64,000 bases of DNA from Billgrantia desiderata. GTDB lineage: Bacteria; Pseudomonadota; Gammaproteobacteria; Pseudomonadales; Halomonadaceae. Both the position numbers and the translations under genes were made by a program. The notes under the pieces were generated by a model that was given only the letters and a program-made list of their open reading frames with translations, searched no databases and was not told the DNA's origin. The stretch is taken from assembly GCA_011742915.1 (NCBI GenBank), contig JAAQTN010000014.1, positions 48,261-112,260 of the forward strand, in the 5' to 3' direction. This document shows, piece by piece, positions 2,991-43,025 of the stretch. Numbering within the stretch: the stretch's first letter is position 1; the number at the start of each line of letters is the position of its first letter.

Positions 2991-3902
2991 TGAGTAGCGC
3001 CGATCCGCCTTGCCGGCCTTCACCACCTGCCCGGGGGTATCGTGGCCGACCAGCGCCGGCAGCATGGCGGAGGCCGCCAGCAGGGCGTCCAGATCGACGC
3101 CGGTCGAGACGCCCATCTGCTCGAACATGTGCACCAGGTCCTCGGTACAGACGTTGCCGGTGGCACCGGGGGCGTAGGGGCAGCCCCCCAGCCCGCCCAG
3201 CGAGGCATCGAAGCGCACGATGCCCGCCTGCCAGGCGGCCAGGGCATTGGCCAGCCCCATGCCGCGGGTATTGTGGAAATGCAGGGTGAAGGGAATCCCG
3301 GGGAAGCGCGCCTGCGCCGCCTCGCAGAGTCGCGCCACCTGGGCCGGGTTGGCCATCCCGGTGGTGTCGCACAGCGTCACCCCCTGCACGCCCAGCGCCA
3401 GCTGACGCTCCACCAGCTCGAGCACGCGCGCCTCGGGCACCTCGCCCTCGAACGGGCAGCCGAAGCTGGTCGAGAGCGAGGCGTTGACGAAGACGTTGCG
3501 GCCGCGAGGGTCGCCACGCAGCGCCTCGACGATGGCGGCGAACTGTTCGAGGGACTGCTCCGGGGTCATGCGCAGGTTGGCCAGGCCGTGGGAATCGCTG
3601 GCCGACATCACCAGATTGACCTCGTCCACCCGGCACTCCAGCGCCCGCTCCAGTCCTTTGACGTTGGGCACCAGCACGGTGATGCCCACGTCGTCACGGC
3701 GCTGTATGCCGCTCACGACCTCGGCCGCATCGCGCAGGTTGGGGATGGCCTTGGGCGAGACGAAGGAGGTGGCCTCGATGCGCGCCAGCCCGGTGGCGGA
3801 GAGCGCATCGATCAGGCGGATCTTGTCCGCGGTGGGCACGAAGGTCGCCTCGATCTGAAAGCCGTCGCGGGGCGCCACTTCGTTGATCTGCAGTTGGGTC
3901 AT
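2976..3902 (-). CDS. HMG-CoA lyase family lyase
   Basis: A 308-residue TIM-barrel lyase that cleaves a 3-hydroxy-3-methyl-acyl-CoA. Visible motifs are EVAPRDGFQ near the N-terminus, LCDTTGMANP, LHFHNTRGMGLANALAA (metal-binding His pair) and the family signature with catalytic Cys, SLGGLGGCPYAPGATGN. The family includes hydroxymethylglutaryl-CoA lyase and R-citramalyl-CoA lyase (acetyl-CoA plus pyruvate). There are no leucine-degradation genes nearby, and the next gene upstream is a CoA-transferase, so a citramalyl-CoA-like substrate is at least as likely as HMG-CoA. GGAG lies 7 nt before the ATG at 3902. The 3' end is tandemly repeated downstream. Confidence 0.88.
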   Translation of the reverse strand: MTQLQINEVAPRDGFQIEATFVPTADKIRLIDALSATGLARIEATSFVSPKAIPNLRDAAEVVSGIQRRDDVGITVLVPNVKGLERALECRVDEVNLVMSASDSHGLANLRMTPEQSLEQFAAIVEALRGDPRGRNVFVNASLSTSFGCPFEGEVPEARVLELVERQLALGVQGVTLCDTTGMANPAQVARLCEAAQARFPGIPFTLHFHNTRGMGLANALAAWQAGIVRFDASLGGLGGCPYAPGATGNVCTEDLVHMFEQMGVSTGVDLDALLAASAMLPALVGHDTPGQVVKAGKADRRYSMPAR

Positions 3903-3927
3903 GCTGGCTCCGGTGTCGGTCGAGGGG

Positions 3928-5133
3928 TCAGATGATGCCTGCGGCGCGCAGCTTGGCGCGGGTCTCGCTGTCGATGCCCAGCTCGTCGAGCACCTCGTCG
4001 GTATGCTGCCCCAGCGCCGGACCGCCGTTGCCCAGACGCCCAGGGGTAGCGCTGAGCCGCGGCAGTACGCCGGGCACCTTGAGCGGCTTGCCGTTGGGCC
4101 GGGTGATGGTCTGGATCATCTCCCGCGCCAGATAGTGCGGGTCGCTGGCGATATCGGCAGCGGTATAGGGATAGCCGCAGGGCACCCGGGCGTCATCCAG
4201 GGCGGCCAGGATGGCGTCGCGGTCGCGCTGGCAGGTCCAGGCCTCGATGGCGGCGTCGATCTCCTCGGCGCGCCGCGCCCGACCGTCGTTGTGGGCCAGC
4301 CCAGGATCCTCGGCCAGGTCGCGGCGGCCGATCACGCCCATCAGGCGCTTGAAGATGCTGTCGCCGTTGCCGGCAATCAAGACGAAGTCGCCGTGGCGGG
4401 TACGGTAGGCGTTGGACGGCGTGATGCCCGGCAGGGCACTGCCGCTGGGCTCGCGCACCTCGCCGGTGGCGTCATACTCCGGCAGCAGGCTCTCCATCAT
4501 GGCGAACACGGACTCGTACAGCGCCACGTCGATCTCCTGGCCCAGGCCGCTGCGGGCGCGCTCCTGCAGCGCCAGCAAAGTGCCGATGACCGCATAGAGC
4601 GCCGACAGCGAGTCGCCGATGCTCACGCCGACCCGAACCGAGGGCTCGCCGGGCTGGCCGGTGAGGTAGCGCAGCCCGCCCATGGCCTCGCCGATCACCC
4701 CGAAGCCGGGCTTGTCGCGGTAAGGGCCGCTCTGGCCGAAGCCAGAGACGTGCACCATGATCAGCCCGGGGTTGTGCTTGGCCAGCGCCTCGTAGCCGAG
4801 CCCCCAGCCCTCGAGCGTACCGGGGCGAAAGTTCTCCACCAGCACGTCGGCCTCCGCTGCCAACCGACGCACCATGTCCTGGCCTTCCTCGCTGCGCAGG
4901 TCCAGCGTGATGGAGCGTTTGGTGCGGCTCTGCACATGCCACCACAGCGAGGTGCCATCCTCGATGATTCGCCACTTGCGAAGGGGGTCACCCGTGCCCG
5001 GCGGCTCGACCTTGATCACGTCGGCGCCGAACTCACCCAGCAGTTTGGTGGCGAAGGGGCCGGCGATCAGCTGGCCGAGCTCGAGAACCTTGAGACCGGC
5101 CAGTGGGAGCTGGCGAGACGCGGGGCTGGGCAT
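3928..5133 (-). CDS. CaiB/BaiF family class III CoA-transferase
   Basis: A 401-residue cytosolic CoA-transferase that moves CoA from a donor such as succinyl-CoA to a carboxylic acid. The N-terminal LKVLELGQLIAGPFATKLLG, the FGADVIKVEPP strand and the SIGDSLSALYAVIG segment with the expected catalytic Asp all fit the family. The start at 5133 (MPSPASRQ) is chosen over one 54 bp upstream because AGGAG lies 8 nt before it. It is the first gene of the operon with the lyase (25 bp downstream) and the hydro-lyase, and diverges from a LysR gene. The succinyl-CoA:citramalate transferase of the 3-hydroxypropionate cycle belongs to this class, which supports a citramalate-type reading; the acceptor is not shown by sequence. 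Confidence 0.87.
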   Translation of the reverse strand: MPSPASRQLPLAGLKVLELGQLIAGPFATKLLGEFGADVIKVEPPGTGDPLRKWRIIEDGTSLWWHVQSRTKRSITLDLRSEEGQDMVRRLAAEADVLVENFRPGTLEGWGLGYEALAKHNPGLIMVHVSGFGQSGPYRDKPGFGVIGEAMGGLRYLTGQPGEPSVRVGVSIGDSLSALYAVIGTLLALQERARSGLGQEIDVALYESVFAMMESLLPEYDATGEVREPSGSALPGITPSNAYRTRHGDFVLIAGNGDSIFKRLMGVIGRRDLAEDPGLAHNDGRARRAEEIDAAIEAWTCQRDRDAILAALDDARVPCGYPYTAADIASDPHYLAREMIQTITRPNGKPLKVPGVLPRLSATPGRLGNGGPALGQHTDEVLDELGIDSETRAKLRAAGII

Positions 5134-25702: not shown

Positions 25703-28104
25703 GCAAGCGCAGCAAGCACCACGACGACGCCACCCTGGATCTGTTCGCCGACCAGAACGAAAGCACCAGCAACGGCGAAAGAGAAGAGTCCCGCGTGAAC
25801 GAAGACCCCGATGTCAGCCCCAAGCCGGAACCGCTACTGGCCGCTTTGCACGACACCCAGGCACTATTCGCCCTGCTCGACCGCTGGGTGGAGCGTGGCT
25901 GGCTGCGCGCGCTCGACCGGGCGCTGGCGAGCTTCTTCCAGCGCGAGGTGAACGACGCCCCGCCCCTGCTGCTGCTCGCCGCGGCGCTGGCCAGCCATCA
26001 GCTCGGCCGCGGTCACGTGTGTCTCGACCTCGCCCAGACCCTGGCCGCCCCCGACCTGGCGCTCTCGCTGCCGCCGGAAGGCGACGACCTGAGCGACCCG
26101 CCGCCGCTACCCAGCGACCTGCTGGCCGAGCTGGAACTCGCCACCTGGCAAGCCGCCCTGCACCACCCCGCCCTGGTGGCGGACGGCAACGAACCACCGG
26201 GCAACACGCCATTGGTGCGCAGCGAGCGCAACGGCAACGTGCGGCTCTACCTGCGCCGCTACTGGCAGTACGAGCAGGACATTCGCGGCCTGATCGGCGC
26301 CCGGCTCACTGCCACAACTCAAGACGCCGCCCAAGGCGCAAACCAGGCCGACACCGCTACCCTGGCCCGGGCGCTGGCCGCACTCTTTACCCCGGAGCAT
26401 GAACTCGACTGGCAGCAGGCTGCCTGTGCGCTGGCCAGCCGCTCGCCCTTCGCCGTGATTACCGGCGGCCCCGGCACCGGCAAGACCACCACCGTGGTCA
26501 AGCTGCTCGCTTTGCTTCAGGCGCTGGCCCTGGGCGAAACCGCACCAGCCGGCGCCGCCGCCCCGCGCCCGCTGCGCATTCGCCTGGCCGCCCCCACCGG
26601 CAAGGCCGCCGCACGGCTCAACGAATCCATCGCCAAGCAGGTGCAGAGCCTCTCGCTGGTAGAACTGGCCGCCGCCGTGGGCCAACAGGGTGTGGATATC
26701 TCAACTCTGCGCGACAGCATTCCCACCGAAGTGACCACGCTGCATAGATTGCTGGGCTCACGGCCGGATACCCGCCACTTCCGCCACCACGCCGGCAACC
26801 CGCTGGCGCTGGACGCCCTGGTGATCGACGAAGCCTCGATGGTGGATATCGAGATGATGGCCGCCGTGCTCACCGCCCTGCCGCCCAGGGCGCGGCTGAT
26901 CCTGCTCGGCGACAAGGACCAGCTCGCCTCGGTGGAGGCCGGCGCCGTGCTCGGCGATCTGTGCCAGCGCGCCGAAGGCGGCCACTACACCCCGACCACC
27001 TGCGACTGGCTGCAACGGGTGACCGGCACGCCAATTCCAGAACGCTACCAGAACGAAGCCGGCCAGCCGCTGGACCAGGCCATCGCCATGCTGCGAGTGA
27101 GCCACCGCTTCGATGCCAAGAGCGGCATCGGCCAGCTCGCCGAAGCGGTCAACCGCCCGCTCGCACCCGATCAGAACGAGAAAGAGGCGCAGAAAGAGAA
27201 GAAACGCGCGGTACGCGAGATCTTCGGCACTGATGGCACTGATGGAAAGTCACGCTACGCCGACATCGCCCGCCTCGCCCTGGCGGACGTCGACGACCCG
27301 GCGCTGGATCGGCTGGTGGTGAACGGCAACCCGGCCGCTTTCACCAACAGCGGCGAAGGCCGCCACGACCGCCGCGGCGAGCCCATCGCCCCGCCCCGCG
27401 GCTACGCCCACTACCTGGACGTGATGCAGGCAGCGCGCCCCACCCAGCCGTTCTTTGGCGAAGGCGAAGGCGAAGCGCGCCAGCCCTACAACGACTGGGC
27501 CCGCCAGGTGCTCGCCGCTCACGGCCACTTCCAGCTGCTGTGTGCATTGAGGAAAGGCCCCTGGGGCATCGAAGGGCTGAACCCACGCATCGGCCGCGCC
27601 CTGCGCCGCGCCGGCTGGCTCAAAGCCAGCGACCTGGAGCTGGAGCAGGGCTGGTTCGAAGGCCGCCCGGTGCTCGTCACCCGCAACGACTACGGCCTGG
27701 GGCTGATGAACGGCGATATCGGCATTACCCTCGCCGTGCCCGAGGCCCGCAGTGCCAGTGAAACGCCCGGCCGCACCCTGCTGCGCGTCGCCTTCCCCGC
27801 CAGCGACGGCAGCGGCGACATCAAATGGGTACTGCCCAGCCGCCTGCAAGCGGTGGAAACCGTATTCGCCATGACCGTACACAAATCCCAGGGCTCGGAA
27901 TTCACCCACACCGCCTTGCTGCTGCCCGACGCCCCCAACCCCATCCTCACCCGGGAGCTGGTCTACACCGGCATCACCCGCGCAAGGGACTGGCTTACGC
28001 TGGTGGAGACGGGTCGCGGCATGCTGGATGAGGCGGTGACGAGGGAAGTGGTAAGGGTAAGTGGATTGGGAAAGTATGTTGCAGTAGCATTAGAAAATAT
28101 TTGA
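25699..28104 (+). CDS. recD: Exodeoxyribonuclease V subunit alpha (RecD)
   Basis: An 801-residue 5'-3' helicase, long for RecD (608 in E. coli). Walker A is GGPGTGKTTT (near residue 256), Walker B VIDEASMVD, and the C-terminal motifs MTVHKSQGSEFTH and VYTGITRARDWLTLV are intact. Extra length lies in a charged N-terminus and an insertion near residues 490-580 (EKEAQKEKKR onward). The last 20 or so codons become AT-rich and untypical, just where the next islet begins, so the C-terminal tail may have been altered by insertion. ATGA overlap with recB. Confidence 0.96.
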   Translation: MSKRSKHHDDATLDLFADQNESTSNGEREESRVNEDPDVSPKPEPLLAALHDTQALFALLDRWVERGWLRALDRALASFFQREVNDAPPLLLLAAALASHQLGRGHVCLDLAQTLAAPDLALSLPPEGDDLSDPPPLPSDLLAELELATWQAALHHPALVADGNEPPGNTPLVRSERNGNVRLYLRRYWQYEQDIRGLIGARLTATTQDAAQGANQADTATLARALAALFTPEHELDWQQAACALASRSPFAVITGGPGTGKTTTVVKLLALLQALALGETAPAGAAAPRPLRIRLAAPTGKAAARLNESIAKQVQSLSLVELAAAVGQQGVDISTLRDSIPTEVTTLHRLLGSRPDTRHFRHHAGNPLALDALVIDEASMVDIEMMAAVLTALPPRARLILLGDKDQLASVEAGAVLGDLCQRAEGGHYTPTTCDWLQRVTGTPIPERYQNEAGQPLDQAIAMLRVSHRFDAKSGIGQLAEAVNRPLAPDQNEKEAQKEKKRAVREIFGTDGTDGKSRYADIARLALADVDDPALDRLVVNGNPAAFTNSGEGRHDRRGEPIAPPRGYAHYLDVMQAARPTQPFFGEGEGEARQPYNDWARQVLAAHGHFQLLCALRKGPWGIEGLNPRIGRALRRAGWLKASDLELEQGWFEGRPVLVTRNDYGLGLMNGDIGITLAVPEARSASETPGRTLLRVAFPASDGSGDIKWVLPSRLQAVETVFAMTVHKSQGSEFTHTALLLPDAPNPILTRELVYTGITRARDWLTLVETGRGMLDEAVTREVVRVSGLGKYVAVALENI

Positions 28105-28156
28105 TATATTTTCGGCCAGAAAAACTCACTAGACAATCGACCAGCAGGAACTACGC

Positions 28157-29593
28157 ATGGACACGAATAGCAAATGGGAGAAACTCCTTAATCAAGGAAG
28201 AAGAAAGTATGATTCCAGAGGAGATGGGCATAGAGAGAATGACACAATACCAACTAGAACTGAGATTGAGCGAGACTACGACAGAATACTTTTCTCAACC
28301 CCTGTTAGACGGCTTGGAGATAAAACTCAAGTTTTCCCATTAGACAACAATGACAGCGTGCGCAATCGACTTACGCACTCACATGAGGTTTCGAATTTAG
28401 CTCGTAGCATTGGCGTGGCTTTGGTCCACAAATATAGCATAGCTAAAGACGTGCCTGACGCATGTAGAAACATACCAGCTCTTTTAGCGGCTATAGGCCT
28501 AGTGCATGACTTGGGTAACCCACCATTTGGTCACCAGGGCGAGGCTGCCATACGAAGTTGGTTTACGGATAACAGAGAGAAATTAACCAAGGACCAAAGC
28601 AATAACGAAGTAATTAGAAAAGAACTTTACGAAGACTTTCTTAATTTTGAAGGAAACGCACAAGGATTCCGACTGGTAACAAGGCTTCAACTGCTTAACG
28701 ACAACTTCGGCCTAGACCTTACTTATGCCACCTTGTCGGCAATGATGAAATATCCAATCCCAGTTTCAAAAATAGACAAAAAGAAAGGAGTTTCCCATAA
28801 AAAATTTGGATACTTTTTCTCCGAAGAGAAAATTGCACAGCAAGTTTTTCAAAAAACTGGCTTACTAGAAGGGAAGCGTCACCCTTTGGCATATTTAATG
28901 GAAGCCTGCGACGACATTGCGTATGCTGTTTTAGATATTGAAGACGCTGTTAAAAAAGGGCTTGCCTCATTTTCAGACTTAATCGCCTACCTTGATCACC
29001 ATGCAAATGGAGACCTCTTAATAAATGAACTAATAAAGGAAAGCGAAGAAAAGCACCAGGAATACAGAACGGCCGAATTATCACCTGACGAGCTTAACGA
29101 TGTCTCAATGCAAAGATTTCGTGTCTTTGCCATTGGGAAAATGGTACAAGCAGTCACCCTCACCTTTACTGATAACTTAGATACGTATATTTCAGGCACT
29201 GCAAACCAACCCATACTTAAATCATCCGAAGCAGAAAAATTGAGGCAACTACTAGGAGATTTTTCTAAAATTCATGCTTTTCAGCATAGATCTGTTTTAG
29301 AGATTGAGCTAAGGGGGCATAACACGATACGATCTTTAATGGATTGCTTTTGGGAGGCGATACGAGAGACCGATCCAGACCATCCAACTAAAATACTTAG
29401 CGCCCCACCTTTTCCTCGCTACGTTTACACAAGGATCTCGGAAAACTATCGTCGTGTTTACACAGACCCTGCCCTTGAAATAAAACAACTTCCGTTGCGA
29501 TATAGACAGCTCATGCTTCTAACTGATATGATATCAGGAATGACAGACTCCTATGCCATGAGCTTATTAGAAGAGTTCAACTCCTTCAGATGA
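28157..29593 (+). CDS. dGTPase-like HD-domain dNTP triphosphohydrolase
   Basis: A 478-residue HD-superfamily enzyme resembling deoxyguanosinetriphosphate triphosphohydrolase (dNTP to deoxynucleoside plus triphosphate). Motifs: RDYDRILFSTPVRRL, RLTHSHEV (metal His74), LVHDLGNPPFGHQGE (His117-Asp118) and CDDIAYAVLD. It is much more AT-rich than the flanking recD gene, with many AAA/ATA/TTA codons, which indicates horizontal transfer. AGGAA precedes the ATG. It overlaps the downstream nucleotidyltransferase by ATGA, so the two act together. Some bacterial dGTPases deplete dNTPs to stop phage; that role here is inferred from islet context only. Confidence 0.85.
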   Translation: MDTNSKWEKLLNQGRRKYDSRGDGHRENDTIPTRTEIERDYDRILFSTPVRRLGDKTQVFPLDNNDSVRNRLTHSHEVSNLARSIGVALVHKYSIAKDVPDACRNIPALLAAIGLVHDLGNPPFGHQGEAAIRSWFTDNREKLTKDQSNNEVIRKELYEDFLNFEGNAQGFRLVTRLQLLNDNFGLDLTYATLSAMMKYPIPVSKIDKKKGVSHKKFGYFFSEEKIAQQVFQKTGLLEGKRHPLAYLMEACDDIAYAVLDIEDAVKKGLASFSDLIAYLDHHANGDLLINELIKESEEKHQEYRTAELSPDELNDVSMQRFRVFAIGKMVQAVTLTFTDNLDTYISGTANQPILKSSEAEKLRQLLGDFSKIHAFQHRSVLEIELRGHNTIRSLMDCFWEAIRETDPDHPTKILSAPPFPRYVYTRISENYRRVYTDPALEIKQLPLRYRQLMLLTDMISGMTDSYAMSLLEEFNSFR

Positions 29594-30297
29594 CACCTGA
29601 TATACTGAAAAAGAGAATCATACAGTATCTCAAAAATGATGCTTGGCACCGTCCTAAACAGCTTGGTGTTTTAGAGCATTTTTGGGAGCACTTACCTGAC
29701 AGCGTGATATTTGGCGGAATGATAAGAGATTTCGCGTTAGATTTTGCGCGAGAATTTCACTCCGACATAGATATAGTGACTCTAGAGCCATCTTCAAGAT
29801 TAGAGGACGTTTTACAACCCTACTCGCCTGTTAAGAACAAATACGGCGGGTATAGATTTCATAACCATGGCTATATCTACGATGCTTGGTCGCTTAATGA
29901 CACTTGGGCCGTAAAAAACAAATTGATAGCGGCAGAGAACTTTGAAGACTTATGCCATACTACCTTTTTTAACCTCGATGCGATTGCATTGGACTTCAAG
30001 AGAAAGAGAATATATACAGCCCCTTGCTTCCATGAAGGGCTATATGAAAAAAATCTTGAAATCAACCTTTCACAACATCCTTTCCCATCGAAAATAGCAA
30101 AAAAGGGAATTTACTTAGCAGCTAAAAAACAATTATCGATAGGGCCGAATTTAGCAAATTACATACTAAATAACTTTTCACCTGACAAACAAGATACATT
30201 TTATGTTGAGCTTGTAAAAAACATGGAGCAACATATTAAGCGCAGCCCTGGTAAACCATTCTCGCCTCATGAGCAACTATTGCTTAATATCTACTAA
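29590..30297 (+). CDS. CCA/poly(A)-polymerase-type nucleotidyltransferase domain protein
   Basis: A 235-residue protein whose N-terminal third has the class II nucleotidyltransferase signature FGGMIRDFALDF (G42-G43, R46-D47) followed by DIDIV (D59, D61). The rest is a Lys-rich helical region with no recognised RNA-binding domain. It is shorter than CCA-adding enzymes (about 400) and is coupled by 4 bp to the dGTPase-like gene. It may nucleotidylate an RNA or protein, or work with the dGTPase on nucleotides. AT-rich codon use matches its neighbours. It ends 9 bp before the convergent gene at 30307. Confidence 0.7.
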   Translation: MTPDILKKRIIQYLKNDAWHRPKQLGVLEHFWEHLPDSVIFGGMIRDFALDFAREFHSDIDIVTLEPSSRLEDVLQPYSPVKNKYGGYRFHNHGYIYDAWSLNDTWAVKNKLIAAENFEDLCHTTFFNLDAIALDFKRKRIYTAPCFHEGLYEKNLEINLSQHPFPSKIAKKGIYLAAKKQLSIGPNLANYILNNFSPDKQDTFYVELVKNMEQHIKRSPGKPFSPHEQLLLNIY

Positions 30298-30306
30298 GCT
30301 CTGGAA

Positions 30307-31008
30307 CTAAGTTCTCCTAGGCAAAAAAAGACGTGACAATTTTTCATCATCAAAGCCGCTGTAATTACTCTTACAAAAGCAGCCAAAACCACATCTTCGG
30401 CTTTTTATCAAGACCTCAGCTTTTAGATTGTCAGCTACGGCGCTAGAAATAGATCTTTCAGCAGCATCAAATAGCACCGTCCCATTCCTTAAACTTATCA
30501 TCGGGTTATCTATCACAATCTCAGTCAAAAACTCAAACAATATTGGATTTTGAGGCTTTCTGATCGTCACCATCTTTTTTTGCAATTCATAGTTATCCCA
30601 TGTTTCTCTAAGCTCTTGGACAGACTGAAAATATTTTTCTTCAGAAGGTGCTTTATCATTCCAGTAAATAGGGTTATCTTTCGTAACCCACACATCAACC
30701 TCATCTTCAAGAAGTAAACTCAAATTAAATTTGAATAGCACGGGGCCATAAATATTCTGCCTAGGAAAAAACCCATGCAAGTCCACCACATCTAAGAAAA
30801 CATCGTCCCAAACATCAAATACCATATCAACGCCATCAGAGGATTGCGGCGTCTGATAGAGACCTCTAACAACCACACCACCTCTTGAGATTAGCCCTCC
30901 ATTTTCTATAAAAGTTACAGAGGTCGCGACTGTGTTGGCGTGATAAAGTGCGTCGACTCCCTTCTCTTTTGAAAGCAAGTCGTACAATTCTCTGTTATCC
31001 AGCTTCAT
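30307..31008 (-). CDS. Unknown protein, possible ART-like fold
   Basis: A 233-residue soluble protein that I do not recognise with certainty. The N-terminal ALYHANTVATSVTFIENGGL followed by ISRGGVV resembles the Y-H...G-G-L-S-R pattern at the start of DarT-like and other ADP-ribosyltransferase folds. NIYGPVLFKFNLSLL could be a later core strand. A CGFGCFCKS cluster near the C-terminus may bind metal. The start at 31008 has GGAGG just upstream. The gene is AT-rich and convergent with the nucleotidyltransferase gene, so it belongs to the same transferred islet. It could be a toxin-like effector; this is a weak inference. Confidence 0.55.
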   Translation of the reverse strand: MKLDNRELYDLLSKEKGVDALYHANTVATSVTFIENGGLISRGGVVVRGLYQTPQSSDGVDMVFDVWDDVFLDVVDLHGFFPRQNIYGPVLFKFNLSLLLEDEVDVWVTKDNPIYWNDKAPSEEKYFQSVQELRETWDNYELQKKMVTIRKPQNPILFEFLTEIVIDNPMISLRNGTVLFDAAERSISSAVADNLKAEVLIKSRRCGFGCFCKSNYSGFDDEKLSRLFLPRRT

Positions 31009-31179
31009 ACTCCCTCCATGAAAAAAATTACTGCTTAACATCTTTTATAGACTTAGCTTATATGGAAAAATTATTAGCTGCATGCTACATGCTAGCACCA
31101 AAATACTCTATGCATCATGACGAGAATCAACGCAACCTAACGGAAAGGTAGGTACTACGAGGCAAAAACGTCTCACCGC

Positions 31180-31425
31180 CCTCACCCGGAAGAGCGGAAA
31201 GTACGCCTCGGTGCCAAAGTGATTACCCGCCTCGACTTTGGTGGGCAGAGTGAAGCCTTCGAAGTGTTGGAAGACGCCCAGGTAGCTGCCAAACGAGGCG
31301 CGCAGGTGATTGTCGTCGCCCCCGGCCCTGGCGACCGGAAGCGTGCCGCTGAGCCAAAAGCGCGTCCAGGAGCAGCCGTTCGCCAAGCCGTCCGAACCGT
31401 AGAGGGATCGGTGGAAGCGTTGGCA
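31180..31425 (-). pseudogene. Decayed DUF6544-family gene remnant
   Basis: The minus strand encodes GSDGLANGCSWTRFWLSG, then PVARAGGDDNHLRASFG, then EGFTLPTKVEAGNHFGTEAY. These match two separated parts of the intact protein at 42138-43025. About 85 residues between LRASFG and the EGFTLP block are missing, and the N-terminal half is gone. It is GC-rich and abuts the AT-rich islet, so it marks the islet's right border. The rest of 31009-31539 holds an AT-rich promoter-like stretch before the gene at 31008 and nothing else recognisable. Confidence 0.85.
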
Positions 31426-37084: not shown

Positions 37085-37180
37085 TCAAGGAGCTTCCTGG
37101 CAACGGTATGGGTTGAGCGCGCCGTTGCGCTCGACTGCCGCTTACCCTATCCCAAGTTACTCGCACTGTGGGGGAATCGA

Positions 37181-37223
37181 TCTTGCCTAGTGCCATTGAG
37201 CGCTACGGCACCGGAAACCGCAC
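37181..37223 (-). pseudogene. 3'-end remnant of a DUF6544-type gene
   Basis: These 43 bp match 42116-42158, the last codons and 3' flank of the intact DUF6544 gene, with only three mismatches. The match stops exactly where the IS3 terminal repeat begins (37224). This is a third trace of the same gene family in the window. The stretch 37085-37180 shows nothing recognisable. Confidence 0.75.
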
Positions 37224-37253
37224 TGATCTTACCCAGCATTGGTGGGCACCGAT

Positions 37254-38090
37254 CTAAGCGATCATTCGAGCCTCAAAAGCCTCTGGGCTGATCATCCCGA
37301 TGGAACTGTGCCGGCGTTGTCGGTTGTAGTCCAATTCAATGTACTCGAACACCTGCTGCCGCTGTTCGCCACCCGGGTCGCGAATCGCTCGCCGTGAATG
37401 GCTTCGACCTTGAGGCTGTGAAAGAAGCTCTCGGCGCAGGCATTGTCGTAGCAGTTGCCTTTGGCGCTCATGCTGCACCGGAGGCTGTGCCGGGTCAGCA
37501 ACGACTGGTACAGCGTCGAACAGTATTGGTTCCCGCGGAGTGAGCGATTACGCCCTTTGGCCTCTTCCGGCTCCACAGGGCCATTTGCAGCGCATTACCG
37601 ACCAGATCAGCCGTCATGCGCTCGCCCATCGCCCAGCCGATCACCTTGCGCGAGTACAGATCAATCAACACCGCCAGGTAGAGCCAGCCTTCACCGGTCG
37701 CCAGGTAGGTGATATCGCCGACCCATTTCTGGTTCGGTGCCGTAGCGCTGAAGCCCTGCTCCAGCAGGTTCGGTGCGACTGGCAAGCCATGCCGTGAATT
37801 CGTCGTGGCCTTGAACTTGCGAGCGGCTTTCGCCCGCAAACTCTGCCGACGGAGGCTGGCAGCAACGGTATTGCGGCAGATGGCTACGCCAGCATCGTTC
37901 AGGTCATGGGTCAGCCTGGGAGCGCCTGAGCGCCCCTTGCCCTGTTCGAAGGCCTGAACCACACGCTGATCGGTGATCGCTTGTCGGCGGCGGCGGGGAG
38001 ACGGCTCACCACCACGCTGTCGCCAGGCGTAGTAGCCGGCCGCTGCGGGCAACACCGAGAAACGCGCACATCCGTTGAATGCTGAAGGCC
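37254..38090 (-). pseudogene. IS3-family transposase orfB, frameshifted
   Basis: A DDE transposase of the IS3 group read across at least three frames. SGYYAWRQ/AWRQRGGEPSPRRRR begins the part homologous to HTH-21, WVGDITYLATGEGWLYLAVL and IDLYSRKVIGWAMGE carry the two Asp, and [17 protein letters not shown] carries the Glu. [20 protein letters not shown] ends it. Frame breaks are near 37500-37530 and 37360-37400. It cannot make a full protein. Confidence 0.88.
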
Positions 38091-38272
38091 TGACGATGCG
38101 CTTTGCTGCCGCTGGGCCTTGGCCCGCCATTGATAAAGCTGACTGGGCTGAAGACCCAGCTAACGAGCGGCGGCACTGGCCCCAATACGGTCGGCGAGTG
38201 CCAGCGCCTCATCCTTGCAAGCCTGGGAGTAACGGGTCGGGTTTTCTTCATTGACGTTGCTTGCCTTGCCAT
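38060..38272 (-). pseudogene. IS3-family transposase orfA, broken
   Basis: The minus strand encodes NEENPTRYSQACKDEALALA, then DRIGASAAAR, a stop (TAG), then LGLQPSQLYQWRAKAQRQ, the typical helix-turn-helix OrfA. The ATG at 38272 is out of frame with this by one base. Thus both a start-proximal frameshift and a nonsense codon inactivate it. Confidence 0.8.
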
Positions 38273-38297: not shown

Positions 38298-39206
38298 TTA
38301 ACGGGGTGTCCACTGTTGCTGGGAAAGCTCAGAAACCTGTTGGATGCTTTCCATAGCTTCAGCCGAAATCCATTCTGATAAACGCAGGCACTTTTCATCT
38401 TTATCGAAAGGTCTTGGTGACAGTAGGCAATAGGATGAGCCGTCCTTTAAAAAGCCAAACGGTGCCGAAAGCTGATTACTTGCAAGCTCATCCTGAACCA
38501 TGAAGAAAGACGAAATGGCCATACCTAGCCCCGACACGGCGGCTTGAATACATAGATAAAAATGCTCGTAATCAACCCGGACACATTCTCTCTCTGGAAT
38601 ACCACTCAGACGAAGCCAGGTATCCCAAGCTTTCGGCCGAGTCCCTGAGTGAAGCAAGCGCATACCCTTCAAAATATCAGCATCCGGGCACGTTCCGGCA
38701 ACGCATACCGGCCCAACCCATTCATCACAGATTTTTATGGCGTGAACCGTATCGTCCCAATGGAAATCGTCACGGCGCAACGCAATATCCACCCCCGTTT
38801 TGGTAAAATCAATGGCTCCGCCAGCCGCCACCAAATGCAAATTGATATCTGGGTGTGCTTTATGAAGAGAGGGTAAGCGTGGAATCAACCACTTCATTGC
38901 GATGGTTGGTTCACAAGACAACACCAACACGCCTTCCCTAGACTCTTGCTGTAGACGGTACACTACACCTTCGAGCTGTTCGAAGAGAGGAGTAGTGACC
39001 GCTTTAAGTGCGCGCCCCGCAGGATTCAGAAATATCGCCCGGTTACGGCGGTCGAATAGTTCAACACCTAGCTCGCTCTCGAGAAGTCGAACCTGGCGGC
39101 TCACAGCCCCATGCGTGACATGAAGCAGCTCGGCGGCTTTCACGAAACTCTGAGTCTGAGCTGCAACGTCGAAGAACCGAAATGCACCTAATGGTGGAAG
39201 CTTCAT
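38298..39206 (-). CDS. LysR-family regulator (GcvA-like), C-terminus formed by IS end
   Basis: A 302-residue regulator. The winged helix (SFVKAAELLHVTHGAVSRQV, then ELFDRRNRAIFLNPAGRAL) and the effector domain (WLIPRLPSLHKAHPDINLHL) resemble GcvA-type LysR proteins. The last 11 residues (ELSQQQWTPR and stop) are encoded by the terminal repeat of the IS3 element, so the native C-terminus has been replaced; the body of the domain is intact and the protein may still function. It is divergent from the dioxygenase-exporter-phosphatase genes, with a short inverted repeat between, and is their likely regulator. Confidence 0.88.
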   Translation of the reverse strand: MKLPPLGAFRFFDVAAQTQSFVKAAELLHVTHGAVSRQVRLLESELGVELFDRRNRAIFLNPAGRALKAVTTPLFEQLEGVVYRLQQESREGVLVLSCEPTIAMKWLIPRLPSLHKAHPDINLHLVAAGGAIDFTKTGVDIALRRDDFHWDDTVHAIKICDEWVGPVCVAGTCPDADILKGMRLLHSGTRPKAWDTWLRLSGIPERECVRVDYEHFYLCIQAAVSGLGMAISSFFMVQDELASNQLSAPFGFLKDGSSYCLLSPRPFDKDEKCLRLSEWISAEAMESIQQVSELSQQQWTPR

Positions 39207-39217
39207 TATTTCCTCGA

Positions 39218-39237
39218 CAAAAACTATCGAATTTTTG
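39218..39237. promoter_or_regulatory. Inverted repeat in the LysR-dioxygenase promoter region
   Basis: CAAAAA and TTTTTG flank CTATCGAA, 12 bp upstream of the LysR start and about 95 bp upstream of the dioxygenase start. A TTGACA hexamer overlaps its right arm. This suits an autoregulatory LysR site. Confidence 0.45.
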
Positions 39238-39331
39238 ACAATATAAATCGCTTTTCTTCTTCCTGCAAGCCCCCCAATAATCCTCTTGTCGCTACATCCA
39301 GCGACCGTCGCTCACTGTATGGAGGGATCCC

Positions 39332-40111
39332 ATGAAAAGCTTCGTTGAAAATTCACCCATTGCGGCCGAAGTGAGGAGCTTTGCACCGGCGCAGCCGCCG
39401 ATCGATAATCTGTGCAAATTACTAGCACAGAAAGACTACTGTTTTCTTACAGCGAAAAAGATGCAAGATCTTTTGTACTCGGTCGATGAGACATCATTAG
39501 AAGATTGGAAAGCATTCCAAGATAGCTGGAATCGGCTTCAACAAGACTCGTATATGAGAGACGGCGGCACCTACCGGTACCGGAGGCACGCAACCTATAG
39601 TGCCGTTCCTTCTGGCAACACTGCACGACTGGAAGCACACCAGCCTCATTATCAAAGTACTGACTACAACACTTTAAACGGTGGCATCGCAAGAGACTTC
39701 GCTCACATTGAAGACGCAATAATCTCTAATAAAGTAATGATTGCCGCTCTGGAATTCTGCTGCGCATGTTTCACTCGCCTTGCTCCTTACTACGCGTGGC
39801 ATATCGAGGTTCACCAATTTCGCATTGATGCGTCCCATACCCGGGCGTCCCCGACACCAGAAGGAATCCATCGAGACGGTGTGAATTTTGTCTTCATGAT
39901 GCTAGTGAACCGTATCAACGTGGTTAATGGAGAAACTTCAATCTACAATCTAGATAAAAAACGTCTATCTAGCTATACGTTAGCTACCCCATTCGAAGCT
40001 GCCATTGTAAATGACGAACGCGTCATGCATGGAGTAACCCCCATCATCAATCTTGATAAAAACAACCCTGGATACCGTGATGTGCTGGTCATTACTTTTA
40101 GCAAGTGCTGA
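39332..40111 (+). CDS. 2OG-Fe(II) dioxygenase, amino-acid hydroxylase family
   Basis: A 259-residue non-haem iron oxygenase of the 2OG-Fe_Oxy_2 family, whose studied member is the Bacillus L-isoleucine 4-hydroxylase (IDO). EGIHRDGVNFVFMMLVNR gives His180 and Asp182, RVMHGVTPI gives His233, and YRDVLVITF gives the 2-oxoglutarate-binding Arg249, so the iron site is complete. It probably hydroxylates a free L-amino acid in the cytosol. GGAGGG precedes the ATG. It is followed by a LysE-type exporter and a ThrH-like phosphatase and is divergent from a LysR regulator. Codon use is more AT-rich than the chromosome average, indicating transfer. The actual substrate is unknown. Confidence 0.87.
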   Translation: MKSFVENSPIAAEVRSFAPAQPPIDNLCKLLAQKDYCFLTAKKMQDLLYSVDETSLEDWKAFQDSWNRLQQDSYMRDGGTYRYRRHATYSAVPSGNTARLEAHQPHYQSTDYNTLNGGIARDFAHIEDAIISNKVMIAALEFCCACFTRLAPYYAWHIEVHQFRIDASHTRASPTPEGIHRDGVNFVFMMLVNRINVVNGETSIYNLDKKRLSSYTLATPFEAAIVNDERVMHGVTPIINLDKNNPGYRDVLVITFSKC

Positions 40112-40127
40112 AAAACTGAACCCAATA

Positions 40128-40152
40128 GGCACGGAAACATTCGTGCCTTTTT
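40128..40152 (+). terminator. Terminator between dioxygenase and exporter genes
   Basis: GGCACG and CGTGCC pair around an 8-base loop and are followed by TTTTTC. It begins 16 bp after the dioxygenase stop and ends 15 bp before the exporter ATG. It may be a partial terminator that lowers exporter expression. Confidence 0.8.
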
Positions 40153-40167
40153 CATAGGGAAAATTAG

Positions 40168-40785
40168 ATGAATGAACTCATAGCTGTAGCAGCTATCACC
40201 ATTCTCGCTGTCATAAGCCCCGGACCTGATTTTGCAATGGTTACGCGTAATAGCTATGCATTTGGCCGGCGCGCGGGACTAATAACTGCCATGGGTATCG
40301 CATGTGGCGTTCAAGTCCACGTACTGTATACAGTACTTGGCATATCTGTAGTCATCACAAGCACACCATTATTATTTTTCTCCATGAAAATCTTAGGCGC
40401 AGGCTATTTGATTTTTCTCGGGATAAAATCATTAACAAATAAATCAAAACTTAAACTAGAAACTGGATCAAAAAATTCACCTACAATTTTCGGTGCTTTT
40501 CGCATGGGATTTCTCACCAATGCCCTAAATCCAAAAACTATGCTTTTTGTGGTCGCCACGTACACCCAGGTGGTGAATGTAGAAAGCTCATTAACCAGCA
40601 GCTTCGCATACGGCCTTTTTATTTCAATATCGCACTGGATGTGGTTCAGTATCGTCGCATATTTTTTCTCAGCAAAAGCACTACGTCGCATCATGTTAGA
40701 TAAACAGAATTTCGTTGACAAAAGTATTGGAACCGCACTGATAGGGTTAGGACTCTCTCTAGTTTTCGCTAATATCGCCCCTTAA
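40168..40785 (+). CDS. LysE/RhtB-family amino-acid exporter
   Basis: A 205-residue inner-membrane protein with about six helices. The N-terminal LAVISPGPDFAMVTRNSYAF with the PGPDF motif and GAGYLIFLGIKSL are typical of the LysE/RhtB family, which exports amino acids and their derivatives by proton exchange. AGGGA lies before the ATG. Its place after the dioxygenase gene suggests export of the hydroxylated amino acid, or relief from an amino-acid overload. The AT-rich codon use matches the neighbours. Confidence 0.92.
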   Translation: MNELIAVAAITILAVISPGPDFAMVTRNSYAFGRRAGLITAMGIACGVQVHVLYTVLGISVVITSTPLLFFSMKILGAGYLIFLGIKSLTNKSKLKLETGSKNSPTIFGAFRMGFLTNALNPKTMLFVVATYTQVVNVESSLTSSFAYGLFISISHWMWFSIVAYFFSAKALRRIMLDKQNFVDKSIGTALIGLGLSLVFANIAP

Positions 40786-40798
40786 AAGAGGATTTATC

Positions 40799-41395
40799 AT
40801 GAAAATTGCCTGCATAGACCTAGAAGGTGTGCTGATTCCTGAGCTATGGCCACACATTGCCCAAGAAACGGGCATAGCATCGTTATCGCTTACAACTCGG
40901 GAATTTCCAAACTACCCTGAATTAATGCGGACTCGCATCGAGACACTCAGACGGAATAGTCTGACATTGGCTACCTTGCAGTCGATTACCGCGAACATCA
41001 CTCCATTTCCTGATGCACAAGAGTTCCTTCATCGGCTTCAGAAAGAGTATGACGTGTCTATAATTTCCGATTGCTTTCACGAGCTTATAGGACCTATTCT
41101 CAACACACTGGGCAGCCCCAAAATAAAGTGTCACCGATTCAACATCGATCCAGCAGGCTATGTCGATCACTGCGTCTATTTCAACAGGCAAGGTAAGGAA
41201 ACTCATGTGGCACAAGCGCTGACGGAAGGTGCTAAAGTCCTTGCTGTCGGAGATGCATATAACGACTTGAATATGCTCCGGCTCGCTCACCACGGCTTCT
41301 TGATACGCCCTAGTAATTCGACACGCGCTGCCGCCCCCGAACTTCCGGTAGTAAACTCTCTAAGCGAGGTGTTTGAAAGGGTCGCTTTCGAATAG
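40799..41395 (+). CDS. thrH: ThrH-like HAD phosphatase/phosphotransferase
   Basis: A 198-residue HAD-superfamily protein aligned along its whole length with Pseudomonas ThrH (phosphoserine phosphatase/homoserine phosphotransferase). IACIDLEGVLIPE holds the nucleophile Asp7, SIISDCFHEL the motif-II Ser, and AVGDAYNDLNML the metal Asp residues. AGAGGA precedes the ATG, 13 bp after the exporter gene. It may form or use phospho-homoserine or phosphoserine, linking the cluster to threonine/serine-type amino acids. As part of this cluster its substrate could instead be a hydroxylated amino acid phosphate; that is speculative. Confidence 0.82.
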   Translation: MKIACIDLEGVLIPELWPHIAQETGIASLSLTTREFPNYPELMRTRIETLRRNSLTLATLQSITANITPFPDAQEFLHRLQKEYDVSIISDCFHELIGPILNTLGSPKIKCHRFNIDPAGYVDHCVYFNRQGKETHVAQALTEGAKVLAVGDAYNDLNMLRLAHHGFLIRPSNSTRAAAPELPVVNSLSEVFERVAFE

Positions 41396-41460: not shown

Positions 41461-41783
41461 CTAAAATCCGCGCTTGAGCAGCCCCCTCGAAGGGCTGTCG
41501 GGTATCGCCTCACGCTCCACATAGGGTCTTAGCTAGGGCGCAGCGCCTTATCAGTCACAAGACCCATAGGATGGCCTAGCAGATCCTCCAGGTAGAACTG
41601 CACCCCGAAATAACGCGCCGAGGTAGCCGGGCCGTCGAAGCCCACAAGAATATCGATGTCGCTGTCGTAGCGAGCCTCATCGCGCGACATGGAACCCAAA
41701 AGAGCCAACGAGGTGGCGCCATACTCGCTGGATAGCGACGGCAGGTGTTCTCGCAACAGCTGTAACGTCTCGGTTCTGTCCAT
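41461..41783 (-). pseudogene. Frameshifted MNT-type nucleotidyltransferase antitoxin
   Basis: The intact part (41529-41783, 84 residues) has the minimal nucleotidyltransferase motif LLGSMSRDEARYDSDIDILV and the tail LLGHPMGLVTDKALRP. It stops just after ALRPS. One base further in another frame the canonical tail continues as LRPYVEREAIPDS to a stop at 41461. So a one-base deletion near 41528-41533 truncates it. These proteins pair with a HEPN toxin, and none follows, so the module is an orphan relic. Confidence 0.82.
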
Positions 41784-42063: not shown

Positions 42064-42137
42064 CAATCATTCGACTGGTCCAGTAGTATTTTGAAACCCT
42101 TGAGCATCTCGCTAATCTTGCCTAGTGCCATCGAGCA

Positions 42138-43025
42138 CTACGACACCGGAAACCGCACCTTTTCCACCCCCACCCGAAAGAAAGGAAAGTACGCCTCGGT
42201 GCCGAAGTGATTGCCCGCCTCGACCTGGGTGGGCAGGGTGAAGCCTTCGAAGTTGCGGAAGTCGTTCAGGTAGCCGCCGAAGGGCTGGTGCCGCCACTCC
42301 TTCTCGGGGTTGGCATTGCTCCAGCGTTGGAACTGTACCCAGCGCGGTTGGCCGTTCTCGGCCACGGCGATCTCTATGGCTTGTTCCAGGGAGCCGTGGG
42401 TGATGATCGCGCGTGCCAGGTTGGGCTCGCCGGTCTCTTCCCAGCGCACTCCGGTCTCTTCCCAGCGCACTCCGTGCTGGGGCAGCAGCGCTGCCGGGGC
42501 CCAGAAGGCGGCTTCCGCCACGGCTCGGCCGAACGAGGCGCGCAGGTGGTTGTCGTCGCCCCCGGCCCTGGCGACGGGCAGCGTGCCGTTGAGCCAGAAG
42601 CGCGTCCAGGAGCGGCCGTTCGCCATGCCGTCCGAGCCACTCATTTGCATCAGGCCGGCGCCGGCTCGTTCGAGTCGCCAGATGAAGCCGTGCGGCGGAG
42701 CGAGTATCTGGCGTGCCTGCATGGGGCGATAGCCGGGTGCCTCCTTGCTACCGAGGCCGATCTCGCCGCTCATATGGATTTCGCTGACCACGTGAAGCGG
42801 CGTACCTGGGGCGATGGTGTAAAGGAAGTAGCGCCGGGCGGCGTCGGGAAGGCCTTCCACCATGGCGGGATCGAACGTTTCGACGGTGGCAGGCGCCTGG
42901 GCTTGCAGCCAGGCCCAGGCCTGCTCCATCGCACGGCTATCGGCCAGGCGCCAGGCTTGCATGGCGAGCACGCCGGTGAGTAGCAGCGCCAGCAGCAGGG
43001 TTACGGCCGCTGCCAGGTATGCCAT
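42138..43025 (-). CDS. DUF6544 (DUF6920) family protein
   Basis: A 295-residue protein with one N-terminal membrane segment (MAYLAAAVTLLLALLLTGVL) and a probable periplasmic domain of unknown function. SWTRFWLNGTLPVARAGGDD and EGFTLPTQVEAGNHFGTEAY are the conserved parts and also occur in the decayed copies at 31180 and 37181. Residues GVRWEETGVRWEETG come from a perfect 21-bp duplication, which may be a recent change. No function is known for the family; membership is by pattern. No operon partners. Confidence 0.7.
   Translation of the reverse strand: MAYLAAAVTLLLALLLTGVLAMQAWRLADSRAMEQAWAWLQAQAPATVETFDPAMVEGLPDAARRYFLYTIAPGTPLHVVSEIHMSGEIGLGSKEAPGYRPMQARQILAPPHGFIWRLERAGAGLMQMSGSDGMANGRSWTRFWLNGTLPVARAGGDDNHLRASFGRAVAEAAFWAPAALLPQHGVRWEETGVRWEETGEPNLARAIITHGSLEQAIEIAVAENGQPRWVQFQRWSNANPEKEWRHQPFGGYLNDFRNFEGFTLPTQVEAGNHFGTEAYFPFFRVGVEKVRFPVS
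42431..42472 (-). repeat. Perfect 21-bp tandem duplication in the DUF6544 gene
   Basis: The 21-bp unit CGGTCTCTTCCCAGCGCACT plus C occurs twice without mismatch at 42431-42451 and 42452-42472. It adds seven residues in frame (VRWEETG twice in the protein). Confidence 0.95.

What the first reader, a model, noticed from the sequence alone, without database searches (positions are those of the whole stretch)
38298..41395. LysR - 2OG dioxygenase - LysE exporter - ThrH-like cluster
A complete-site amino-acid-type dioxygenase, an amino-acid exporter and a phosphoserine phosphatase/homoserine kinase-like protein lie in one rightward set under a divergent LysR. Dioxygenases of this family (such as Bacillus IDO) occur beside exporters, but the ThrH-like third gene is unusual. 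Together they may make and excrete a hydroxylated or phospho-derived amino acid, perhaps as a signal, antimetabolite or osmolyte. AT-rich composition shows transfer.
Basis: partly seen in the sequence, partly recalled or inferred. Interest (0 to 1): 0.8.

Follow-up and report, generated by a model that had tools for sequence, protein, structure and literature searches.

The report
Probable hydroxythreonine antimetabolite gene cassette
Four genes found together in many distantly related bacteria look like a portable kit that turns an ordinary amino acid, most likely threonine, into a growth-inhibiting look-alike, pumps it out, and protects the maker with a phosphatase; the product and the protection are still inferred.

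Summary
A divergent LysR, a PF10014 dioxygenase with a complete Fe/2OG site, a LysE-type exporter and a catalytically intact ThrH-like HAD protein lie at 38298-41395 in an AT-rich island. The set is conserved: 18 of 80 related loci carry all four in the same arrangement, in eleven named families. The proteins co-diverge (r 0.83-0.93) and 14 of 19 spacers share an operator-like site (0.003 expected). Cluster ThrH lies apart from 13 unlinked ThrH (100/100). Best explanation: the dioxygenase makes 4-hydroxy-L-threonine, the exporter releases it, and the ThrH-like enzyme removes the phosphate added by the cell's homoserine kinase. Support: PF10014 enzymes hydroxylate threonine; Robbsia andropogonis, reported to make hydroxythreonine (titles only), carries the cluster; a homoserine-kinase-like gene was found in 19 of 19 carriers (18 above cut-off). 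Substrate and phosphatase role are inferred. Against: ThrH is missing from some LysE-linked relatives; PF10014 relatives use other amino acids; one review treats phosphorylation as the detoxifying step. A new variant of hydroxylase-exporter operons.

The parts
38298..39206 (-). LysR regulator, GcvA/DsdC-like (below those models' cut-offs), divergent from the other three
   Evidence: LysR hit beside the dioxygenase in 21 of 80 loci
39243..39254 (+). operator-like site ATAAATCGCTTT in the LysR-dioxygenase spacer
   Evidence: exact ATAAATCGnTTT in 14 of 19 cluster spacers, 0.003 expected from shuffles; the only exact TATAAATCGnTTTT in this genome, 2 further sites with one mismatch
39332..40111 (+). 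PF10014 Fe(II)/2-oxoglutarate dioxygenase, predicted free-amino-acid (threonine) hydroxylase
   Evidence: AlphaFold2 pLDDT 89.0; best solved fold 3PL0, TM 0.80
40127..40148 (+). stem-loop followed by a T-run between dioxygenase and exporter; possible attenuator
   Evidence: 6 such sites in the region, 3.5 expected; z -3.4 against shuffles, but only 7 of 19 cluster gaps reach z -2
40168..40785 (+). LysE/RhtB-type amino-acid exporter
40799..41395 (+). ThrH-like HAD phosphatase/phosphotransferase, cluster type
   Evidence: AlphaFold2 pLDDT 92.9; best solved fold 1RKU ThrH, TM 0.92
37180..37223 (+). left copy of a 44-bp direct repeat flanking the island
   Evidence: 93% to 42115-42158
42115..42158 (+). 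right copy of the 44-bp direct repeat, inside DNA shared with relatives
37495..38130 (-). transposase ORF with rve and HTH_21 domains (IS3-like: name recalled); neighbouring ORF 37292-37576 not scanned; 38006-38272 gave no Pfam match
   Evidence: 37222-37280 has many 81-95% copies in relatives
41529..41783 (-). nucleotidyltransferase-domain ORF (84 aa) right of the cluster; not counted as part of it

Best explanation
A self-contained, horizontally spread antimetabolite cassette. The LysR senses a metabolite and acts at the operator-like site. The dioxygenase hydroxylates free L-threonine at C4 to 4-hydroxy-L-threonine (4HT, the same compound as 3-hydroxyhomoserine). The LysE/RhtB-type pump exports it. 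Inside cells, homoserine kinase turns some of it into 4-phosphohydroxythreonine (4HTP), which interferes with threonine synthesis; the ThrH-like HAD enzyme removes that phosphate, returning 4HT for export and protecting the maker. Shown here: the conserved operon, intact catalytic residues, co-divergence, shared operator-like site, a distinct ThrH group, homoserine-kinase-like genes in the carriers. From literature: PF10014 threonine hydroxylation, growth inhibition by 4HT/4HTP, hydroxythreonine production by Robbsia (titles). Inferred: that this dioxygenase prefers threonine, the pump's cargo, and the phosphatase/immunity role.
For: 18 of 80 loci have the four-gene set, and each ThrH lies with LysE and LysR; pairwise identities of the four proteins correlate at r 0.83-0.93, 0 of 2000 permutations as high for each of 6 pairs. 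PF10014 members make 4-hydroxythreonine (PMC3684760); AVI and BPE act on threonine, MFL does not (PMC8948231, passages). Robbsia andropogonis is reported to make L-threo-hydroxythreonine (Mitchell 1986, 1988: titles only, in reference lists); its genome has the full cluster (L015) and one dioxygenase hit (G302), grouped with the window's at SH-aLRT 87, below the 95 mark. [quoted passage not shown] ThrB phosphorylates 4HT and 4HT is called toxic (PMC7954711, passages). [quoted passage not shown] Homoserine kinase: TIGR00938 above cut-off in 16 of 19 carriers, TIGR00191 above cut-off in 2 of the other 3 and 158.4 bits (cut-off 168.25) in the last, so the cluster ThrH is not needed for threonine supply.
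Against: No activity data. PF10014 also holds Leu and Ile hydroxylases, and HrmJ, BelL and TqaL are relatives. L054, from Methylobacillus flagellatus, is 44% identical to the window's enzyme and MFL (that species' enzyme, recalled) is reported inactive on threonine. Three loci keep LysR and LysE without ThrH (L028, L036, L057) and 0 of their 3 genomes has a ThrH hit; six Streptomyces loci have LysE only; three family genomes (L089, L090, L100) have LysR-dioxygenase-LysE with no ThrH in the DNA fetched. ThrH is thus not obligatory. Published work presents phosphorylation of toxic 4HT to 4HTP by a DUF1537 kinase as the repair step (PMC10971088, passage), the opposite direction to mine. PMC6522883 glosses 4HTP in one legend as 4-hydroxy-threonine, so which form is toxic is not cleanly separated there. 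The places of AVI and BPE on the tree are unsettled. Robbsia's hydroxythreonine could come from the rhizobitoxine pathway. Whether TIGR00938-type kinases act on 4HT is unknown to me.
Confidence: 0.45

Rival explanations
1. Same architecture, different amino acid: the dioxygenase hydroxylates leucine, isoleucine, methionine, homoserine or another free amino acid; the exporter releases the product as antimetabolite or signal, and ThrH acts on a phosphorylated form of it.
For: PF10014 enzymes differ in substrate; pocket positions differ from isoleucine dioxygenase: Y143 to I165, S153 to P174, F206 to N227, while R227 is kept as R249 (my mapping); neighbours of the dioxygenase vary among the loci looked at.
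Against: A ThrH relative and an RhtB-type exporter both point to homoserine/threonine chemistry; Robbsia carries the cluster and is reported to make hydroxythreonine (titles).
Confidence: 0.27
2. ThrH runs as a phosphotransferase: it phosphorylates 4HT to 4HTP, an intermediate of vitamin B6 synthesis, so that the cluster is a side entry to pyridoxal phosphate or a repair route like that of the DUF1537 kinases.
For: ThrH transfers phosphate from phosphoserine to homoserine, and a ThrH homologue is proposed to phosphorylate threonine (PMC10714395); DUF2257 plus DUF1537 are described as converting threonine to 4HT to 4HTP (PMC7954711); phosphorylation of toxic 4HT is described as repair (PMC10971088).
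Against: A B6 route would not need an exporter, yet the 18 ThrH-bearing clusters each have one; carriers have homoserine-kinase-like genes already and ThrB of B. subtilis phosphorylates 4HT. PMC7954711 also notes a study placing DUF1537 in acid-sugar catabolism instead.
Confidence: 0.16
3. Amino-acid overflow control: LysR senses excess threonine or homoserine, the exporter relieves it, and the two enzymes rework related metabolites; no antimetabolite is intended.
For: LysR beside a LysE-type exporter is a known overflow arrangement (recalled); the cargo is unknown.
Against: An oxygen- and 2-oxoglutarate-consuming step that would make a toxic analogue is an odd relief valve; patchy presence in distant taxa looks like an accessory trait.
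Confidence: 0.08
4. In this genome the cassette is a recent, silent acquisition without function, though functional elsewhere.
For: AT-rich island beside a transposase ORF and within a 44-bp repeat.
Against: The four frames are intact with conserved catalytic residues and an exact operator-like site.
Confidence: 0.04

Closest known systems
IDO operon of Bacillus thuringiensis (PF10014 isoleucine 4-dioxygenase, AMKP reductase, RhtA exporter; PMC3684760)
   Same: PF10014 amino-acid hydroxylase beside an exporter; product described as an excreted antimicrobial
   Different: RhtA-family exporter and a reductase instead of LysE and ThrH; the match of the window's dioxygenase to IDO is remote (53 bits)
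Hil operon (HilR, HilP, HilA, HilB, HilC; Pantoea, Pseudomonas; PMC3684760)
   Same: LysR plus PF10014 dioxygenase
   Different: second dioxygenase, binding protein and short-chain dehydrogenase; the words LysE and ThrH do not occur in that paper; HilB model 51 of 350 bits
DUF2257-DUF1537 route threonine to 4HT to 4HTP (Smirnov 2012, Thiaville 2016, as cited in PMC7954711)
   Same: PF10014 threonine hydroxylase and a phosphate step on 4HT
   Different: kinase of another family, working towards phosphorylation; no exporter in the passages seen
ThrH of Pseudomonas aeruginosa (1RKU)
   Same: fold (TM 0.92) and catalytic residues
   Different: 35% identity; the cluster type lies on the other side of a 100/100 branch from 13 unlinked ThrH (1RKU itself was not in that tree)
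AMB cluster of P. aeruginosa (ambABCDE; abstract seen)
   Same: LysE-type transporter with Fe/2OG oxygenases making a toxic amino acid
   Different: includes two peptide synthetases; no ThrH-like gene among its five genes

Membership tests
PF10014 free-amino-acid dioxygenases | full-length match to PF10014 | tested here: met
   226.7 bits, 1-192 of 192
PF10014 free-amino-acid dioxygenases | H-x-D...H iron triad and arginine equivalent to IDO R227 | tested here: met
   H180, D182, H233, R249 invariant in 36 sequences; IDO numbering
PF10014 free-amino-acid dioxygenases | hydroxylates a free L-amino acid | not testable with these tools
   needs an assay
IDO / Hil operons | close IDO or HilB orthologue | tested here: not met
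   NF042428 HilB 51 of 350 bits; 6LNH 53 bits
IDO / Hil operons | dehydrogenase/reductase gene (AR, HilC) in the operon | tested here: not met
   the four genes of 38298-41395 are of other families
ThrH (bifunctional PSP/homoserine phosphotransferase) | equivalog models | tested here: inconclusive
   NF010109 met (219 against 133); TIGR02137 not met (145 against 223)
ThrH (bifunctional PSP/homoserine phosphotransferase) | HAD catalytic residues | tested here: met
   D7, E9, D152, N155, D156 invariant in 19; S90 is T in 2 of 19 (motif roles recalled)
ThrH (bifunctional PSP/homoserine phosphotransferase) | groups among unlinked ThrH | tested here: not met
   cluster (19 rows) and unlinked (13 rows) on two sides of a 100/100 branch
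RhtB/LysE exporters | LysE Pfam match | tested here: met
   107 bits
RhtB/LysE exporters | exports homoserine or threonine | not testable with these tools
   TIGR00949 best but below cut-off
DUF2257-DUF1537 threonine-to-4HTP route | DUF1537 kinase in the same operon | tested here: not met
   third gene is HAD/ThrH

The most novel reading that the evidence does not exclude
[quoted passage not shown] The cassette spreads as a unit among plant-, soil- and water-associated bacteria. (No genes assigned to 4HT production in a producer were seen; one search listed 15 of 1,299 papers.)
Probability: 0.37. Interest if true: 0.75.

Novelty: new variant of a known kind. Interest (0 to 1): 0.6.

Why it matters
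It would give genes to an antimetabolite reported from Robbsia andropogonis in 1986 (title seen), explain why a ThrH type sits outside serine and threonine synthesis, and show self-protection by dephosphorylating a wrongly phosphorylated product. It also gives a simple genome-mining rule (PF10014 + LysE + ThrH) and candidate threonine hydroxylases for biocatalysis and vitamin B6 engineering.

Tried and rejected
Housekeeping homoserine-kinase role of the cluster ThrH: rejected, because a separate homoserine-kinase-like gene was found in 19 of 19 carriers, 18 above cut-off, and 15 of 18 other carriers have no second ThrH hit. Copy of a local housekeeping ThrH: rejected; in this genome the only other match is far below the cut-off (59 of 133 bits). 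Osmolyte (hydroxyectoine-like): not pursued, the dioxygenase is PF10014. A stem-loop between dioxygenase and exporter looked general by eye, but only 7 of 19 gaps reach z -2, so it is not claimed as a cluster feature. Empty site: sought; the flanks exist in relatives but in another order, so no clean junction. BPE of Bordetella petrii: sought in the GTDB genus of L013 (15 genomes; only that genome's own hit). Pocket residues do not decide the substrate. Papers: no paper tying ThrH to a PF10014 operon was seen. One search (ThrH, PF10014, hydroxythreonine and related terms, at least two) listed all 13 of its papers, none holding both ThrH and PF10014; some searches showed only 20 of 33, 15 of 223, 20 of 43 and 25 of 81. 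The library lacks most subscription journals; Smirnov 2012, Thiaville 2016, Farrington 1993 and Mitchell 1986/1988 were not read.

Change made on re-checking: (phosphorylation as repair of toxic 4HT) had been left out; it is now in, and I lowered the best explanation from 0.48 to 0.45 and the novel case from 0.40 to 0.37, and raised the phosphotransferase rival from 0.13 to 0.16.
Full report
What is there. The last three are separated by 56 and 13 bases, as in an operon. The dioxygenase carries H180-x-D182...H233 and R249, invariant in 36 aligned homologues. The ThrH-like protein carries D7, E9, D152, N155 and D156, invariant in 19 aligned cluster members; S90 is T in two (motif roles recalled). 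Predicted structures are confident (pLDDT 89.0; 92.9). The nearest solved folds are 3PL0, a BsmA homologue, for the dioxygenase (TM 0.80, 31% identity) and 1RKU, ThrH of Pseudomonas aeruginosa (TM 0.92, 35% identity).

Island. GC in 300-base steps is 0.39-0.54 over the genes, 0.58-0.65 just left and 0.66-0.71 right of 42200. A 44-bp direct repeat (37180-37223, 42115-42158, 93%) brackets the genes and a transposase ORF. In 275 family genomes, 116 give some match to the dioxygenase at E 0.001 or better, most of them weak and partial; the next best after the window's own are G071 and G072 (48% identity), G069 (48% over a part, with a stop in the frame) and seven genomes of one genus (G140-G144, G146, G148) at 40-46%. 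L089, L090 and L100, from G072, G071 and G069, have LysR-dioxygenase-LysE without ThrH in the DNA fetched. Acquisition by transfer is likely. No clean empty site was found: in G097 and G005 the right flank lies upstream of the left flank, and similarity to G031 on the right reaches in to about 41900 (L146).

The neighbourhood is conserved. One scan of genome contigs gave 140 confirmed relatives, of which the best 80 were kept. Of these 80, 18 have LysR (divergent), LysE and ThrH all in place; 3 have LysR and LysE; 6, all Streptomyces, have LysE only; 53 have none of the three detectable by tblastn with the window's proteins (other exporter families would be missed). Six of the 80 have under 1500 bases downstream, one of them a full cluster. 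Each ThrH lies with LysE and LysR. Carriers include Pseudomonas gingeri, P. capeferrum, Stutzerimonas, Bordetella ansorpii, Dickeya oryzae, Robbsia andropogonis, Serratia microhaemolytica, Amantichitinum, Rugamonas, Crenobacter and metagenome bins, one labelled Verrucomicrobia; eleven families are named among them. On the dioxygenase tree (quick method, 98 rows) the label full/LysE/none needs 7 changes against a shuffled mean of 27.9. Pairwise identities of the four proteins correlate at r 0.83-0.93, 0 of 2000 permutations as high for each pair (window plus 17 loci after dropping one near-copy). The genes diverged together. In plasmids, 43 records hold a dioxygenase match, all under 60% identity; I looked at four of them, and none of the four shows the LysE-ThrH arrangement.

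A shared regulatory site. ATAAATCGnTTT occurs exactly in 14 of 19 LysR-dioxygenase spacers, 0.003 expected from dinucleotide shuffles; one has one mismatch, two have two and two have none. With up to one mismatch it occurs anywhere in 14 of 18 cluster loci and in 5 of the 62 other loci, two of those five being LysR+LysE loci (L036, L057). It is often preceded by CTCACA-like letters some 10-15 bases upstream (by eye). In the window's genome TATAAATCGnTTTT is exact only here, with two further one-mismatch sites. This points to a dedicated regulator. A terminator-like stem-loop lies between dioxygenase and exporter; it is significant in the window (z -3.4) but only 7 of 19 gaps reach z -2.

ThrH is a special type. 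Cluster ThrH (19 rows) and 13 ThrH that lie away from any such cluster (two of them identical) fall on two sides of a branch with 100/100 support. In 15 of 18 carriers outside the window the cluster copy is the only ThrH hit; in the window's genome it is the only match above cut-off. A homoserine kinase lies elsewhere: TIGR00938 above cut-off in 16 of 19 carriers, TIGR00191 above cut-off in 2 of the other 3 and at 158.4 bits (cut-off 168.25) in the last. So the cluster enzyme is not needed as homoserine kinase, while a kinase that might act on a homoserine look-alike is at hand.

What it makes. [quoted passage not shown] AVI of Agrobacterium vitis and BPE of Bordetella petrii act on threonine while MFL does not (PMC8948231, passages). 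A review states that DUF2257 (older name of PF10014, recalled) proteins convert threonine to 4HT (PMC7954711, passages), calls 4HT toxic and says ThrB of B. subtilis phosphorylates it. [quoted passage not shown] Against my direction, a third describes phosphorylation of toxic 4HT to 4HTP by a DUF1537 kinase as repair (PMC10971088, passage). Robbsia (Pseudomonas) andropogonis is reported to make rhizobitoxine and L-threo-hydroxythreonine (Mitchell and co-workers 1986 and 1988: titles only, in reference lists). The Robbsia andropogonis ICMP2807 genome has the complete cluster (L015) and one dioxygenase hit, and its dioxygenase groups with the window's (SH-aLRT 87, below the 95 mark). Of three genomes of that genus two carry the dioxygenase, both with LysE, ThrH and LysR. 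ThrH is described as a phosphoserine:homoserine phosphotransferase (PMC10714395, passages), and 4HT is 3-hydroxyhomoserine (chemistry, recalled), so a ThrH relative is a natural enzyme for 4HTP.

Mechanism proposed. Threonine is hydroxylated to 4HT; the pump exports it; 4HT that homoserine kinase turns into 4HTP is brought back by the ThrH-like phosphatase. Each enzyme step is inferred for this cluster. Further points against: ThrH is missing in three LysR+LysE loci (L028, L036, L057), whose 3 genomes have no ThrH hit, and in the Streptomyces loci; ThrH enzymes can also transfer phosphate; L054 from Methylobacillus flagellatus is 44% identical to the window's enzyme and MFL (recalled as that species' enzyme) is inactive on threonine; the tree places of AVI and BPE are unsettled. 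Pocket residues mapped by me from IDO show a changed pocket (Y143 to I165, S153 to P174, F206 to N227; R227 kept as R249) but do not name the substrate.

Relation to known systems. Hydroxylase-exporter operons are known (IDO, Hil: PMC3684760). This cluster differs by its LysE-type exporter and ThrH-type third gene, and falls far below the HilB model (51 of 350 bits). I therefore file it as a new variant of a known kind. I saw no paper linking ThrH with PF10014 (13 of 13 listed; some searches listed in part); most subscription papers are not held.

Noticed in passing
window 28001-31000: A second AT-rich stretch (GC 0.40-0.42 in 2-kb steps) in the same window, not examined.
   Followed up: no
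window 42138-43025 and 31176-31398: A DUF6544/DUF6920 gene right of the island; pieces similar to it lie near 31.2-31.4 kb, and in G097 and G005 the order of the flanks differs, suggesting local duplication or rearrangement.
   Followed up: partly
L036:6505-7419 and L027:5907-6824 (Hylemonella): A TauD-family dioxygenase lies downstream of the PF10014 gene, in L036 in the place where ThrH would be: perhaps a different tailoring step.
   Followed up: no
L019:5879-6622 (Chromobacterium): A dioxygenase that falls among the cluster-type ones on the tree has no LysE or ThrH hit and sits beside a family 3 solute-binding protein.
   Followed up: no
L117 (Agrobacterium vitis plasmid): PF10014 dioxygenase next to a DMT transporter and an argininosuccinate-synthase-related protein: another exporter-type operon with a possible ligase.
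   Followed up: no
L052:2-760 and 3480-4373: One metagenome contig has two PF10014 genes, the second in a full cluster.
   Followed up: no
PDB matches of the dioxygenase model: HrmJ, BelL and TqaL are structural relatives, so enzymes of this fold may do more than hydroxylation (their activities are recalled).
   Followed up: no
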